58,456 nt of DNA from Candidatus Pacearchaeota archaeon. GTDB taxonomy: Archaea > Nanobdellota > Nanobdellia > UBA10117 > JAFCGA01. Every line of letters begins with the position of its first letter. Within the stretch, counting starts at the first letter, position 1. The notes beneath the pieces are model-generated. The model made no database searches, was not told where the DNA came from, and saw only the letters and a program-made list of their open reading frames with translations. Below are positions 30,669 to 35,852 of this stretch, one piece after another. A program made the position numbers and the translations under genes. Where the stretch lies: positions 1 to 58,456 of the forward strand of contig JAFCGA010000006.1 in NCBI GenBank assembly GCA_017608345.1, in the 5' to 3' direction.

Positions 30669-30752
30669 GCCGAGGTCGCATAACCTGGTATTGCGCCGGC
30701 CTCGAAAGCCGGTTTCCGAAAGGATATGTAGGTTCGAATCCTGCCCTCGGCG
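30669..30752 (+). tRNA. tRNA-Ser(CGA)
   Basis: An intronless class II tRNA of 84 nt including discriminator G. The acceptor is GCCGAGG/CCTCGGC, the D-stem GCA/TGC and the anticodon arm CCGGC-CTCGAAA-GCCGG (anticodon CGA). The long variable arm is TCC-GAAA-GGA, and the T-arm GTAGG-TTCGAAT-CCTGC. No CCA is encoded. It is followed at once by the Dph2 C-terminal remnant on the other strand. Confidence 0.93.
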
Positions 30753-30753
30753 C

Positions 30754-30837
30754 TTATACTTCATCCCAAGTAACAACCAACTTCCCCAAATCGTCATCCA
30801 CAATTCTTGGACAAGCAGTATTCATCCAGACACTCGC
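30754..30837 (-). pseudogene. Remnant of a second dph2 3' end
   Basis: Reading leftward, the last 27 codons before a stop at 30754 give ASVWMNTACPRIVDDDLG then KLVVTWDEV. This parallels the end of the functional Dph2 C-part (DCWVNTACPRIVDDQES...KLIVNYDEI), including the Fe-S cysteine in TACPR. Upstream of 30837 the similarity ends, and there is no room for the rest of the gene. It is a diverged copy of the 3' end, left beside tRNA-Ser by duplication or rearrangement. Between it and dph2 a CTCGG-CAAAA-CCGAG hairpin lies near 30861-30875. Confidence 0.75.
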
Positions 30838-30883: not shown

Positions 30884-31549
30884 CTAGATTTCATCATAAT
30901 TCACAATTAACTTATCGTAACTTTCTTGATCGTCTACAATTCTAGGGCAAGCAGTATTAACCCAGCAATCTATCTGAGGAAAGTTCAGCAACTCTAATGG
31001 AGAGATTAAATCTCCTAAGAAAATATAAGCTTCCTTGCCTTGTTTCTCTAACTTAGTCTTAACTTTCTCAGCTTCTTTTATTCTATTCTGCCCAGGTTTT
31101 GTAGATACAAAGAGTCCAAAAACAGAGCAGTCCTTGGCCTTTGCCATCCGCGCAGCTTTCTTGGCTAAATATTTCCGCTTCTCAGCTTCGGAAATTACCT
31201 TTACGTAGTTGCAGGAAGGATTAGCAACTATAACTTTTTTGTCTGTCTCTAAGGCAACACCGAGAGGGTGGAACTCGCCGGTTCCGATGTAGAGAAAACA
31301 ATCAACTTTTGATTCAATTTTTGTAGCTGCTTTTACATTGCAACCTAAGACTTGGCCTTCGTAAGTTGTTCCTTTGCCCATGAAAACTTGCTTTCCTTTC
31401 GATTCTAAGAGCTTTTTGACTTTTGCTAGCTCTCCAATATGCTGGACGGTTGTTACTAGACCTATTTTTTTATCTAGCTGCGGAAGAGCTTTCTTTACAG
31501 CTGGCAAGACATTGATGTCGGAGCGCGCTTCGATGTTTAATATTCTCAT
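30884..31549 (-). CDS. dph2: Diphthamide synthase Dph2, domains 2-3 only
   Basis: This 221-aa protein starts MRILNIEARSDI and matches archaeal Dph2 from its second domain onward: TTVQHIGELAKVKKLLES, TTYEGQVLGCNVKA (second Fe-S Cys, residue 70), GEFHPLGVAL, LFVSTKPGQ and NTACPRIVDD (third Fe-S Cys, residue 201). The whole first domain with the first Fe-S Cys is missing here and is encoded at 35291-35530. Dph2 uses SAM and a 4Fe-4S cluster to add 3-amino-3-carboxypropyl to a histidine of elongation factor 2. It is in an operon with the S51 peptidase and Nudix genes (ATGA overlaps). Confidence 0.85.
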   Translation of the reverse strand: MRILNIEARSDINVLPAVKKALPQLDKKIGLVTTVQHIGELAKVKKLLESKGKQVFMGKGTTYEGQVLGCNVKAATKIESKVDCFLYIGTGEFHPLGVALETDKKVIVANPSCNYVKVISEAEKRKYLAKKAARMAKAKDCSVFGLFVSTKPGQNRIKEAEKVKTKLEKQGKEAYIFLGDLISPLELLNFPQIDCWVNTACPRIVDDQESYDKLIVNYDEI

Positions 31550-32148
31550 TCTATAATTCTCTCCTGTCCATCCAGAATTAAAATCGCTTGATTATCTGTT
31601 AGCGTTTTTACTTCATATCTTGAATTAGCAGTAGCGTCAGCTATTATTTTTTCATATTTTGGTTCATAATGAGCAGTTACTAAAAACGGCACAAGGTTCA
31701 GAGCAGTTAGATCTTCCAGCCCAGCTCGATCTCTATCTTTATGTTTCCATGTAGCCATTTCGATAGTTGGACAAGCAATATAACTTCCAGCACTCTCACC
31801 TACGTAAACCTTCCCAGCAGAGATAAATCTCTTAATTATCTTATCAAATCCAGTCTCGTATATGCGTTTCAGAAGATAATAAGTATTGCCGCCACAAATG
31901 TATATTACATCATAGTCTTTAATTTCGCTCCAGCTGACTTCTTTAATATCAAACTCCGTAATTTCTGTAACTCCTACTGCAATCAACTTCTTTTTAGACC
32001 ATCTTAGCCAGTAAGGATTCTTATCGAGGTTTGCAGCAGTTATTATATAAAGTACTGTAATCTCTCTTGCTGGTTTTCCAATTATCTCTAAGAACTTCTT
32101 CATAATTTTCTGATTCTCAAATCCAGCGGATGTTAAGAGTAATTTCAT
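31546..32148 (-). CDS. Peptidase S51/type 1 glutamine amidotransferase-like
   Basis: This 200-aa protein has CGGNTYYLL and the nucleophile elbow GESAGSY, as in aspartyl dipeptidase E and cyanophycinase relatives; AHYEPKYEK may supply the His. It would hydrolyse a small peptide. It is the middle gene of Nudix-S51-Dph2, overlapping both by four bases. Confidence 0.83.
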   Translation of the reverse strand: MKLLLTSAGFENQKIMKKFLEIIGKPAREITVLYIITAANLDKNPYWLRWSKKKLIAVGVTEITEFDIKEVSWSEIKDYDVIYICGGNTYYLLKRIYETGFDKIIKRFISAGKVYVGESAGSYIACPTIEMATWKHKDRDRAGLEDLTALNLVPFLVTAHYEPKYEKIIADATANSRYEVKTLTDNQAILILDGQERIIE

Positions 32149-32561
32149 TTCTTAAAATAATTAACAACAGGTTCTATATTCGGAGCACAGTTTTTCGGTA
32201 ATCTATTGATATCGAACCAGTTAAGCTCATCGATATCTTTTCCCTTCGCCAGTGTACCCTTAATTATTTTTGCAGGAAAATGAAATAATATCACGAACTC
32301 CTTTTCTCGAGGGAATTCGATTACGTATGGATCTCCCGAGATCGATATATCAATATTAGCTTCTTCTTTAGCTTCTTTTATTGCATTTTCTTCTAGAGTT
32401 AGGTCTGTTAATTGCGATCCGCCCGGAAACTTCCAAAAAGAATCGCTATGTTTAACTAGTAGAACTTTTCTATTCTTTATAATTACTGGACCTGAAGCGA
32501 TAGTTAATTTTAGGTTCTTTCCATCGGGACTTTTCGCAGGATAGTTCTTAAGTTCGGCCAT
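32145..32561 (-). CDS. Nudix hydrolase
   Basis: This 138-aa protein carries the Nudix box as GGSQLTDLTLEENAIKEAKEE: G-x5-E-x7-xE-x2-EE, with Lys in place of the usual Arg before EE. KFPGGS precedes it. It should cleave a nucleoside diphosphate linked to another group. It is the first gene of the operon with S51 peptidase and Dph2 C-part. TATA-like CTTTTTAAAG lies about 25 bases upstream (near 32583-32592). Confidence 0.85.
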   Translation of the reverse strand: MAELKNYPAKSPDGKNLKLTIASGPVIIKNRKVLLVKHSDSFWKFPGGSQLTDLTLEENAIKEAKEEANIDISISGDPYVIEFPREKEFVILFHFPAKIIKGTLAKGKDIDELNWFDINRLPKNCAPNIEPVVNYFKK

Positions 32562-32596
32562 AAGAAAATAAGTTCTGCGAGCTTTAAAAAGTTAGT

Positions 32597-32752
32597 TTAT
32601 TTCTGAGTATAGATGTCTGGGAAGAGCTTTTCAATTGGAATTAGCTTATCTGGATTTGCAAGAGCATCAGCTAGTAGCTTATCAATAAGCTTAATTTCTT
32701 CTCTTGTGAATGTATCATCATAATCAGCTTTTCTTAACCTCTTATCTTTCAC
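32597..32752 (-). CDS. 51-aa protein, GTG start
   Basis: A small frame reads VKDKRLRKADYDDTFTREEI, then a Leu/Asp-rich helix and PIEKLFPDIYTQK. It starts at GTG; an ATG six bases upstream is out of frame and short. A good TATA-like CTTATAAAAC at 32772-32781 stands about 25 bases before the GTG, which is the main support. The sequence looks like a small dimeric helical protein, possibly an antitoxin, but no toxin is adjacent. Confidence 0.5.
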   Translation of the reverse strand: MKDKRLRKADYDDTFTREEIKLIDKLLADALANPDKLIPIEKLFPDIYTQK

Positions 32753-32791
32753 GATTCATTTAGAAAAAATTGTTTTATAAGAACATTATGG

Positions 32792-33727
32792 TTAATAAGG
32801 CATCAATTTCCCAAACCATTCAATTGGCTCTTCTTTGTGCTTCCAGTTGAGATCCATGAACAAGTAATGCATTGCATATCCGCGCCATCCAGCGAATTTT
32901 TTCTTTACTATTTCTAATATTTTCTTTGGATCTACTGTATTTACATTAAGTAATTTAGAATAAATCTTAGCTTCCCATGGCGGAACAGTATCTAAAGCAT
33001 TTTTCCTATGAAAAACATCGCGAGCAATATAATCAACGCTAGCAGGTCCAACTCCGTAAATACTCAGTAGCTTCTTTCTAAGCTCTTCATCAGAAATATT
33101 TCTCATTTCAAATTCATCTAATTTCAAATAATCCTGACTTGCTCGCAAGAAAGACTTAGCTCTGTAACCTACTTTTAGTGCGCGTAATTCTTCCTCAGGA
33201 ACTTTCAAAATCCTCTCCGGTGACCAAAAGCAGTAAAACTCCTTTCCATCAAATTCTAGCAAATCCCCGTAGTTTTTTAGCATTCCTTGAGCCATCTTCA
33301 CTGTTCTTTTAACATGTGTATTCTGGAGCAAAATAGTAATCATAAGATACTCATACAAATCATCGATACAAAACATTCGCATACCTTTGAACTTCTTGAC
33401 AATTTCTGGAAAGTCTTTCAGCACTTTGTAAAGCTCGCTAAGGTCTTCGTTCCATTCGAGTCGGTAAATTAGCTCATCGATTAGCTCCGCGTAATTCAAT
33501 TTATTCTTAGAATATATTGAGACTTCAACAGCTGGCTTATCAACTGAACCTTTATTGACAAGTTTTACTCCAATTGGCTCTTCCTGCCAGCGCATTGTGA
33601 ACCAGATTTTATTTTCTTCTTCGTCGCCTGTTGGAGTTGGAAAGTGCGAGGGATTTCTAGTGCTATACTTGAAGTTGTAAGGTGCTTTTGGGTGAACTAA
33701 TTCTATATAAACTGCTTTAAGTTTCAT
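32792..33727 (-). CDS. HhH-GPD DNA glycosylase, AlkA/OGG-like
   Basis: This 311-aa protein has an N-terminal mixed domain (VYIELVHPKAPYNFKY; WFTMRWQEEPIGVKLVN) like AlkA or OGG, and a helical core. The hairpin is LLSIYGVGPASVDYIARD, and the catalytic Asp is in NALDTVPPWEAKIY. The Lys of bifunctional glycosylases is absent from the hairpin helix, so it is probably monofunctional, removing alkylated or oxidised bases. Together with AlkD-like and Nth genes about 4 kb away it adds to a base-excision set. Confidence 0.83.
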   Translation of the reverse strand: MKLKAVYIELVHPKAPYNFKYSTRNPSHFPTPTGDEEENKIWFTMRWQEEPIGVKLVNKGSVDKPAVEVSIYSKNKLNYAELIDELIYRLEWNEDLSELYKVLKDFPEIVKKFKGMRMFCIDDLYEYLMITILLQNTHVKRTVKMAQGMLKNYGDLLEFDGKEFYCFWSPERILKVPEEELRALKVGYRAKSFLRASQDYLKLDEFEMRNISDEELRKKLLSIYGVGPASVDYIARDVFHRKNALDTVPPWEAKIYSKLLNVNTVDPKKILEIVKKKFAGWRGYAMHYLFMDLNWKHKEEPIEWFGKLMPY

Positions 33728-33757
33728 AAGAAAATAAGTTTTGAGAGCTTTAAAAAA

Positions 33758-34168
33758 CTAATTAAGCGAAGAAACCTTGTTGAATTCAGTTATCTGTCTT
33801 TCTAGTTGCTCCGGTGATAGCTCTGTTAAATTATCTATCGTTACTACGTATGGTGGCTCGCCAGTATTTGCAATAACATGGCAATGATAATGTTCATCGC
33901 TTCTATGAGGTCCATCATTTTCCCAATAAGCAATATCTGTAAGCGCGGGATGAAGTATTTGTAATTTCTTTTTAGCTAGCAATTTAAGCTCGCGTATTGC
34001 TAGAACTTCTGCAGAAGTAATTTCCTCTAAGCTTTTCCTATGCGCTTTTGGAAGAATCACAATATGGCCTGGACCAAAATTCGGATTAGAAAACCTAGCA
34101 TACGCTAGCTCATTCTCTAAGATAATCGGTGTTTTTGGTTCATCGCATATGCATTTGTAGTCTGTCAT
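33758..34168 (-). CDS. HIT family protein
   Basis: This 136-aa protein starts MTDYKCICDEPKTPIILEN. It has FGPGHIVILPKAHRKS and a histidine triad in HYHCHVIAN, one residue apart from the usual HxHxH pattern with Cys inside. It probably hydrolyses a nucleotide phosphoramidate or dinucleoside polyphosphate. The ATG at 34168 is chosen because a TATA-like CTTATAAATAC lies about 25 bases upstream; in-frame codons up to 34228 run through that promoter. Confidence 0.82.
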   Translation of the reverse strand: MTDYKCICDEPKTPIILENELAYARFSNPNFGPGHIVILPKAHRKSLEEITSAEVLAIRELKLLAKKKLQILHPALTDIAYWENDGPHRSDEHYHCHVIANTGEPPYVVTIDNLTELSPEQLERQITEFNKVSSLN

Positions 34169-34259
34169 ACTAAACCGCCGTTTAATGTATTTATAAGGCT
34201 TTCGATTAAGAATAGTGGTACTTAGCAAAATAAAAAATAAAAAAGCTAATCTCCTCTAA

Positions 34260-34553
34260 TTATTTAATTTTAGAGAAGATTTGTATAGCCATAGTTATGG
34301 CTGCAATTAGCACTAATATAAACGCTATAACGATGAAAATCAAGATTAGATAATCAACAGCTACTGCAATGGTTGGAAGTACGCCGGATACTGTGGTTAC
34401 AACTGAACCAAGTAAAAGGAATACTGCACCAGCTGCAAGGTAACCTAGCTCCTTCTTGATCAAATCTGCGTAACCGCTGTACTTCAATAGTGCTAACCCA
34501 ACTAGAAGTCCAATACCGACTCCTAAGGTTCCTTCAAATCCTAGTAATGCCAT
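34260..34553 (-). CDS. Three-helix membrane protein, 97 aa
   Basis: Three hydrophobic segments (TLGVGIGLLVGLALL, ELGYLAAGAVFLLLGSVVT, YLILIFIVIAFILVLIAAI) with a charged KKEL turn between the first two. There are no other motifs. It is monocistronic, with an A/T-rich box (TATATAAAAC) near 34590. Function unknown. Confidence 0.65.
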   Translation of the reverse strand: MALLGFEGTLGVGIGLLVGLALLKYSGYADLIKKELGYLAAGAVFLLLGSVVTTVSGVLPTIAVAVDYLILIFIVIAFILVLIAAITMAIQIFSKIK

Positions 34554-34683
34554 TTTGTCACCTGTTTAGGTATGAGGATAATAACGCCTTGTTTTATATA
34601 AACTTTTCTTTTCCTCCCACGTTTTTTTGCTACTTTATCATAGTTCTATAGCATTATAATCGTCCAATAGTTTAGGTCAAATT

Positions 34684-35133
34684 ATGGAATTGCGGAGACG
34701 AATTGAGCTAACAACTGCGATAAGTCCAAAAGAGATTATCAAATCATTTATTCTTCTTGAACTAGAGGAAAAGATAATTCGCAAGTACTTCACCAAAAAT
34801 AATCTCCGCGTTTCTCCTCAGATCAAGTCTCTTGAAATTTCGATAGATTACTATATTCAAGAAGCACTGGAGCAGGAGCAAGAATTGATCAGATTGATGC
34901 GCAAAGCTCGGAAAACAAATGATCCGGAAGATATGTGGCTAGTTCAGAAAGCATTTAACAAATTGTTTGGTAAAGCAAATTCTCCATACAGAACAGTTAG
35001 TAGATTAAATAATGAGCTAGAAAAAGGGCTAGTAAAGATTAAGAGGAATACGGTAGCACATGTTCTTAAGCGCATCGAGAACCGGCTTAATAAGTTGTCC
35101 CAAAAAATAATCTCTAAGGGCGTTAAAGCGTGA
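34684..35133 (+). CDS. Hypothetical coiled-coil-like protein, 149 aa
   Basis: A mostly helical basic protein: EIIKSFILLELEEKIIRKYF, EALEQEQELIRLMRKARK, RLNNELEKGLVKIKRN, RIENRLNKLSQKI. It looks like a nucleic-acid-binding or structural helical protein, but no family is recognised. Its 3' end is followed 12 bases later by the second 143-bp repeat, which may serve as its terminator. Confidence 0.6.
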   Translation: MELRRRIELTTAISPKEIIKSFILLELEEKIIRKYFTKNNLRVSPQIKSLEISIDYYIQEALEQEQELIRLMRKARKTNDPEDMWLVQKAFNKLFGKANSPYRTVSRLNNELEKGLVKIKRNTVAHVLKRIENRLNKLSQKIISKGVKA

Positions 35134-35144
35134 AATAGTCTTAA

Positions 35145-35287
35145 TTTATTACTTTTCTGGGTTCAAAACCCCACAGCTTGCTGTGGTCTTTTGGGAAAGT
35201 AATTACCGAAATTCCGTCTCGAAGATTCGCGTAAAACCCCACAGCTTGCTGTGGTTGGGATAGCGAATCTTAGGAATTTCTGTTTAT
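35145..35287. repeat. 143-bp double-hairpin repeat, copy 2
   Basis: This is the more regular copy. Hairpin 1 is ATTACTTT...AAAGTAAT with an inner CCACAG-CTTG-CTGTGG. Hairpin 2 is GAAATTCC...GGAATTTC with AAGATTCGC/GCGAATCTT and the same inner CCACAG-CTTG-CTGTGG. It fills the gap between two convergent genes, a 149-aa protein and the Dph2 N-domain, whose stop codon is three bases away. It could be a structured RNA, a bidirectional terminator or a MITE-like mobile repeat. Confidence 0.78.
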
Positions 35288-35290
35288 TAT

Positions 35291-35530
35291 TTACCTGAAT
35301 TCTGAGTGCCCGAAATTAACAACTAAATCAACCTTTGCAGTAGGAACATCACAAGCGCCAAAGTTCGAACCCATCCAAATATGAATCTTCGCAGAGGTCT
35401 TTTCTTCTAGCTCTTTAGCTACTCGTGTAGCTTTAGGTTTTAACCCATCTGGGAACTGTAAGAGAACTGTCTTGGCTTTGCTAGCTTTGATTTCTTTGAT
35501 TATTCTTGGCAGTTCGAGGTTGTAAGCCAT
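35291..35530 (-). CDS. dph2: Diphthamide synthase Dph2, N-terminal domain only
   Basis: This 79-aa protein starts MAYNLELPRIIKEIKASKAK. TVLLQFPDGLKPKA is the first Dph2 Rossmann-like strand and loop, and GSNFGACDVPTAKVDLVVNFGHSEF holds the first Fe-S Cys (residue 60) and the GHS that ends domain 1. It then stops; in ordinary Dph2 the chain continues into the sequence found at 31549-30884. The ATG at 35530 is chosen from the family start and a TATA-like CTTAAAAATC 25 bases upstream. Stop TAA is three bases from the 143-bp repeat. Confidence 0.85.
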   Translation of the reverse strand: MAYNLELPRIIKEIKASKAKTVLLQFPDGLKPKATRVAKELEEKTSAKIHIWMGSNFGACDVPTAKVDLVVNFGHSEFR

Positions 35531-35564: not shown

Positions 35565-35852
35565 GTGAAAACAATCACAAAACAAAAGCTAGACAAATAT
35601 TTCTCTCTAACTAGCCGAGCTCTCAAAAAAGTCAAAATCAAATCAAAACTCACAAAGAAACAAAGAGCTCAGGCAGAAGATTTCTTAGAAATGACTAAGA
35701 ACTACTTTTCAGATGCTAAATATTTCAGAGAAAAAGGCGATTGGGTAACTGCATTTGCAGCAGTTACTTATGCGCATGCTTTCTTAGATGCGGGTGCTAG
35801 ATCCGGAGTTTTTGACACGCAAGGTGATACTACTTTGTTTGCTGCGGATTAA
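35565..35852 (+). CDS. DUF357 family protein
   Basis: This 95-aa helical protein has the DUF357 pattern: FLEMTKNYFSDAKYFREKGDWVTAFAAVTYAHAFLDAGARSG. It starts at GTG, supported by the TATA-like box 25 bases upstream and by the family length. DUF357 is archaeal and of unknown function, probably a small helical hairpin dimer. Confidence 0.82.
   Translation: MKTITKQKLDKYFSLTSRALKKVKIKSKLTKKQRAQAEDFLEMTKNYFSDAKYFREKGDWVTAFAAVTYAHAFLDAGARSGVFDTQGDTTLFAAD

What the first reader, a model, noticed from the sequence alone, without database searches (positions are those of the whole stretch)
30884..35530. Diphthamide synthase Dph2 is split into two genes 3.7 kb apart
A 79-aa gene (35291-35530) matches only domain 1 of Dph2 and ends right after the GHS motif. 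A 221-aa gene (30884-31549) matches domains 2-3 and begins at the next domain. The first Fe-S cysteine is in the small protein; the second and third are in the large one. Both parts have good start signals and intact motifs, so a working enzyme would have to build its 4Fe-4S site from two polypeptides. I do not know of a described split at this point.
Basis: partly seen in the sequence, partly recalled or inferred. Interest (0 to 1): 0.88.

Follow-up and report, generated by a model that had tools for sequence, protein, structure and literature searches.

The report
Ancient split of diphthamide enzyme Dph2
A tiny archaeon makes the first enzyme of diphthamide synthesis from two separate genes; the split is real and probably works, but it is shared by most of its phylum, looks ancient, and similar splits were already noted in relatives in 2013 and 2018.

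Summary
The 79-aa N part and the 221-aa C part match positions 1-81 and 91-315 of the Dph1/Dph2 model. They map to residues 8-84 and 92-300 of a solved archaeal Dph2, with only a 7-residue interdomain loop missing. No intact dph2 was found in this 1.05-Mb, 88%-complete genome. EF2 with the target histidine, Dph5 and Dph6 are present.

It is neither unique nor new. All 17 genomes of the order with any Dph2 match carry halves, never an intact gene. In a 188-genome sample of the class, 165 are split at this boundary, 19 have an intact gene and 4 have none. The Fe-S cysteines are invariant in every half read. The concatenated tree needs one split event (branch support 82/94). Nearly all intact genes form a separate clade, so they look like a second lineage and not re-fusions.

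Podar 2013 listed split DPH2 in nanoarchaeon Nst1. A 2019 review, citing Narrowe 2018, lists split Dph1/2 in Parvarchaeota, Pacearchaeota, Woesearchaeota and Altiarchaeota.

Best reading: an ancient, retained gene fission whose two products assemble into an ordinary Dph2. Assembly and catalysis are inferred and untested. The 3.7-kb spacing is local: relatives keep dph2N, a small membrane-protein gene and dph2C together.

The parts
35291..35530 (-). dph2N: Dph2 domain 1 as a separate 79-aa protein; carries Fe-S cysteine 1 (GSNFGACD)
   Evidence: TIGR00322 1-81, E 2.6e-21; 6BXM residues 8-84; cysteine in all 61 N halves of the tree set
30884..31549 (-). dph2C: Dph2 domains 2-3 as a separate 221-aa protein; carries Fe-S cysteines 2 (QVLGC) and 3 (NTACPR)
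   Evidence: TIGR00322 91-315, E 3.6e-51; 6BXM residues 92-300; cysteines in all 63 C halves
34260..34553 (-). 97-aa membrane-protein gene, no family; lies between dph2N and dph2C in relatives, so marks the older gene order
   Evidence: phmmer to ORFs between dph2N and dph2C in G002-G007 and G009; no Pfam family over cut-off
35565..35852 (+). DUF357 protein gene, divergent from dph2N; near dph2N in several relatives
   Evidence: PF04010 E 2.5e-25; phmmer
31546..32148 (-). peptidase S51 gene, overlaps the dph2C start by 4 bases, probably same operon
   Evidence: PF03575 E 3.9e-32; coordinates
32145..32561 (-). NUDIX hydrolase gene, overlaps the S51 gene by 4 bases
   Evidence: PF00293 E 5.5e-11
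32792..33727 (-). HhH-GPD repair-type protein gene, one of those lying between the halves in this genome
   Evidence: PF00730 E 1.5e-06
33758..34168 (-). HIT-domain protein gene, lying between the halves in this genome
   Evidence: PF01230 E 8.1e-07
30754..30834 (-). remnant of the 3' end of a second, diverged dph2C copy (SVWMNTACPRIVDDDLGKLVVTWDEV*), abutting tRNA-Ser
   Evidence: phmmer 3e-06; translation, and 83% identity over 36 bases to dph2C; tRNA at 30669-30753

Best explanation
An ancestral archaeal Dph2 gene was broken once, in the loop between domain 1 and domain 2, early in this phylum (the Nanoarchaeota lineage of DPANN). Both pieces have been kept since. They are made as separate proteins that dock in the same geometry as the single chain. 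The small subunit supplies the first cysteine and the large subunit the second and third, holding the 4Fe-4S cluster that cleaves S-adenosylmethionine and moves a 3-amino-3-carboxypropyl group to the EF2 histidine. Dph5 and Dph6 then finish diphthamide. Shown here: homology, boundary, conserved cysteines, presence of the other pathway genes and target, phylum-wide distribution, likely single origin. Inferred: physical assembly, a shared cluster and catalysis. The 3.7-kb gap is a local rearrangement of an older dph2N - membrane gene - dph2C order.
For: One continuous match across the two proteins. No intact copy in the genome. EF2 with DCKLHEDSIHRGPAQ, Dph5 E 3e-76 and Dph6 E 6e-66 are present. 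In the class sample 165 genomes are split, 19 intact, 4 without; the N half is found in 154 of the 165. A nearly constant boundary: N ends at model 89-95, C begins about 84-99 where its start is alignable. The three cysteines are invariant in every half read. The split forms are one side of a single branch, 82/94, one change of state; each half alone does not reject this (p-AU 0.72 and 0.85, held tree more likely). Co-loss: three of four genomes without Dph2 also lack Dph5 (Fisher p 0.001), and those three have an altered EF2 loop, IHVDxxHRG for LHEDxIHRG. Some relatives keep the halves adjacent, N ending in GAGG-rich codons just before the C start, which suggests translational coupling. G023, split at the same place, is one 605,887-base contig, the published length of the closed Nanopusillus acidilobi genome.
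Against: No biochemical or proteomic evidence was available here. Genome completeness is 88%, so an intact gene in the missing part is not excluded. Single origin rests on a branch with bootstrap 82; the quick trees of each half alone did not recover it freely. The outgroup is only three sequences, none from sister phyla. Co-loss rests on few genomes, all in one family. Eleven split genomes lack a detectable N half; in nine of them incompleteness or divergence could explain this, but G046 and G067 are 99% complete.
Confidence: 0.85

Rival explanations
1. The halves are decaying remnants; diphthamide synthesis is lost or carried out by an intact copy elsewhere.
For: Genome is 88% complete. A decayed copy of the dph2C end lies just downstream. 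G204 and several families hold intact genes.
Against: Both halves are intact and motif-conserved across about 50 families. Highly complete genomes, including single-contig ones (G023, G053, G079), have only the two halves. Dph5, Dph6 and the EF2 target are kept.
Confidence: 0.05
2. Assembly or sequencing artefact: one gene broken by misassembly.
For: MAG-type multi-contig assembly. A relative, G005, shows a false third piece caused by 100-N scaffold gaps.
Against: No gap in the window stretch; stop, start and overlap signals are normal. The same boundary occurs in 165 sampled genomes, including closed ones.
Confidence: 0.01
3. Recurrent independent fissions at the same weak point, not one ancestral split.
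For: The domain 1/2 loop is a natural break point. Trees of single halves are weakly resolved. Altiarchaeota, outside this phylum, are also reported split (PMC6349945).
Against: Concatenated tree needs one change for 63 split rows. Holding the split rows together raises the likelihood for both halves.
Confidence: 0.12
4. Intact genes in the phylum are re-fused split genes.
For: Families f9, f11, f26, f33, f44 and f51 hold both forms.
Against: Seventeen of eighteen intact rows form one clade, 100/99, outside the split clade; the other, G245, groups with the Pyrococcus sequence. G204 holds an intact gene and a C half.
Confidence: 0.08

Closest known systems
Split DPH2 of nanoarchaeon Nst1 (Nst 222-440; Podar et al. 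2013, PMC3655853)
   Same: Dph2 encoded by two distant genes in a nanoarchaeote; Nanopusillus acidilobi, reported as extensively syntenic with Nst1, appears as G023 (same closed length) and is split at this boundary.
   Different: The break point in Nst1 is not given in the text read. Our genome is from another family of the same class.
[quoted passage not shown] 2018, as cited in PMC6349945)
   Same: Same enzyme, same phenomenon, overlapping lineages.
   Different: The original paper is not held, so its split sites and genome list were not compared.
Archaeal single-chain Dph2 (6BXM, 6Q2D, Pyrococcus horikoshii 3LZC)
   Same: Same domains, three cysteines, continuous alignment.
   Different: One chain, not two; homodimer. 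Our form would need two chains per active site.
Eukaryotic Dph1-Dph2 heterodimer
   Same: Two different polypeptides form the active enzyme.
   Different: There each subunit is a full three-domain paralogue; here one domain is cut off as its own protein.
Split genes of Nanoarchaeum equitans (reverse gyrase, DNA polymerase I, alanyl-tRNA synthetase and others)
   Same: Essential proteins encoded in two pieces in reduced symbiotic archaea.
   Different: N. equitans lacks Dph2. No intein or trans-splicing element was noted in the ORF ends read here, but none was searched for systematically.

Membership tests
Dph2 (TIGR00322 / PF01866) | Sequence homology over all three domains | tested here: met
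   N part 1-81, C part 91-315 of 320
Dph2 (TIGR00322 / PF01866) | Three Fe-S cysteines, one per domain | tested here: met
   Columns 67, 169, 297 all Cys
Dph2 (TIGR00322 / PF01866) | Single polypeptide | tested here: not met
   Two ORFs 3.7 kb apart, no intact copy found
Dph2 (TIGR00322 / PF01866) | Pathway partners and EF2 target histidine in the genome | tested here: met
   EF2, Dph5, Dph6
Dph2 (TIGR00322 / PF01866) | 4Fe-4S binding, SAM cleavage and ACP transfer | not testable with these tools
   Needs protein chemistry
Split Dph2 of Nanoarchaeota and other DPANN | Domain 1 and domains 2-3 in separate genes, same boundary as relatives | tested here: met
   N ends at model 89-95, C begins about 84-99 where alignable, across the set
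Split Dph2 of Nanoarchaeota and other DPANN | Common descent of the split | tested here: met
   One change, branch 82/94; not rejected by either half
Split Dph2 of Nanoarchaeota and other DPANN | Same break point as published Nst1 genes | tested here: inconclusive
   Nst1 itself not identified; G023 has the exact length of N. acidilobi and the same boundary

The most novel reading that the evidence does not exclude
[quoted passage not shown] It has been inherited by most families, while an intact foreign Dph2 lineage later replaced it in several of them.
Probability: 0.6. Interest if true: 0.5.

Novelty: new member of a known kind. Interest (0 to 1): 0.33.

Why it matters
If the halves assemble, an Fe-S cluster is built across a subunit border in a radical enzyme, and has been for most of a phylum's history. 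That tests how far Fe-S enzymes tolerate fission. The near phylum-wide split, with a separate intact lineage, is also a usable marker for DPANN evolution and gene replacement. The split itself is not a discovery.

Tried and rejected
Three-piece Dph2 in G005: rejected, both break ends lie at 100-N scaffold gaps. Insertion inside one frame in G003, suggested by a 500-aa open-frame entry: rejected, N and C are separate ORFs. In-frame stop with read-through in G018, G191, G196, G197: not favoured; each has a start codon just after the stop, the stop codon varies, and the other adjacent pairs do not share a frame. EF2 lacking the target in G001 and G011-G013: a regular-expression miss, the histidine is there. 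Genome-contig search for named relatives gave one locus only, an intact gene. Narrowe 2018 is not held. Structure prediction was not run: relatives' sequences from genome searches are not accepted, two chains cannot be modelled together, and a lone half was judged uninformative. TIGR00290 is not in the library; PF01902 was used.

Full report
What is there. The two ORFs exist as described. The 79-aa protein at 35291-35530 (minus) matches Dph1/Dph2 model positions 1-81 and the 221-aa protein at 30884-31549 (minus) matches 91-315. On solved Dph2 6BXM they cover residues 8-84 and 92-300. Only a short interdomain loop is absent. The first Fe-S cysteine is in the small protein, the other two in the large one. 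No third match exists in the 1,046,156-base, 15-contig, 88%-complete genome.

Is the pathway there? Yes. EF2 carries DCKLHEDSIHRGPAQ. Dph5 (E 3e-76) and Dph6 (E 6e-66) are present. A weak second PF01902 match is under the cut-off.

How widespread is the split? In the order, all 17 genomes with any match carry N and C pieces and none an intact gene; two of them, G014 and G015, show only one half. In the class, 184 of 188 genomes match: 19 have a full-length gene and 165 have pieces. A search with the N half alone finds it in 173 genomes, that is the 19 intact plus 154 of the 165 split. The phylum draw contained only this class. The counts are mine, from the tables; some weaker rows were not listed by the tool.

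Is the boundary the same? Yes. In the ORFs read, N halves end at model position 89-95 and C halves begin at about 84-99 where their start is alignable; some divergent C halves align only from about 105-129. All three cysteine columns are Cys in all 61 N halves, 63 C halves and 18 intact proteins.

One split or many? A tree of 84 rows, with the boundary columns left out, puts all 63 split rows on one side of one branch (82/94), one change of state. Quick trees of single halves did not recover this freely, but the tree with split rows held together was more likely for both halves, p-AU 0.72 and 0.85. Seventeen of 18 intact rows form a separate clade (100/99), spread over families that also hold split genes. 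G204 has both an intact gene and a C half. So intact genes look like a second lineage that replaced the split one. The direction of replacement is inference.

Why believe it works? The halves persist in highly complete genomes with no other Dph2. Three of four sampled genomes without Dph2 also lack Dph5 (p 0.001). Those three, all of family f11, have a changed EF2 loop, IHVDxxHRG in place of LHEDxIHRG. One further genome without Dph2, G192, keeps the normal loop and may simply be incomplete. Eleven genomes were tagged near or adjacent with little or no spacing, and there N ends in a tryptophan codon, in most after a purine-rich GAGG-type stretch, just before the C start. That is consistent with coupled translation.

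Why 3.7 kb? In G002-G007 and G009 a relative of the window's 97-aa membrane protein lies between dph2N and dph2C on the same strand. In the window the same gene follows dph2N, after an opposite-strand 149-aa ORF, but HIT, HhH-GPD, NUDIX and S51 genes lie between it and dph2C. This looks like a local expansion.

What is known? Podar 2013 lists DPH2 split in Nst1 and absent in N. equitans. Dombrowski 2019 cites Narrowe 2018 for split Dph1/2 in several DPANN phyla. Wurch 2016 reports a closed 605,887-base N. acidilobi genome with extensive synteny to Nst1 and a common core of split genes, and proteomics detecting about a third of its proteins. G023 is one contig of exactly that length, so it is very probably N. 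acidilobi, and it is split at the same boundary. PhDph2 cysteines 59, 163 and 287 as cluster ligands are from PMC11048331.

Limits. No structure was modelled, no named sister-phylum genomes were available, and assembly of the two proteins is unproven.

Noticed in passing
30754-30834 (-): Decayed 3' end of a second, diverged dph2C copy (26 codons and stop, NTACPRIVDD motif kept) between dph2C and tRNA-Ser(CGA); may record a past gene replacement or duplication.
   Followed up: partly
35134-35290: Two strong nested hairpins sharing the exact 18-mer CCCCACAGCTTGCTGTGG, with different outer arms, just downstream of dph2N (fold z-score -4.7). Only one further copy in the genome (C14:62646).
   Followed up: partly
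34260-34553 (-): 97-aa membrane protein without a Pfam family over cut-off, found between or next to dph2 halves in most of the order; function unknown.
   Followed up: partly
L161, L162, L163 (G178, G113, G021): EF2 with an altered diphthamide loop in family f11 genomes that lack Dph2 and Dph5.
   Followed up: partly
L051, L052, L053, L057, L077, L083, L084, L088, L129, L130, L131: Closely spaced dph2N-dph2C pairs in which N always ends in Trp just before the stop, in most after a purine-rich SD-like stretch.
   Followed up: partly
L048 and L092 (G204): One genome with both an intact dph2 and a split-type C half.
   Followed up: no
L128 and L019 (G005): Scaffold gaps of exactly 100 N cut dph2C into two distant parts: a scaffolding error.
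   Followed up: yes
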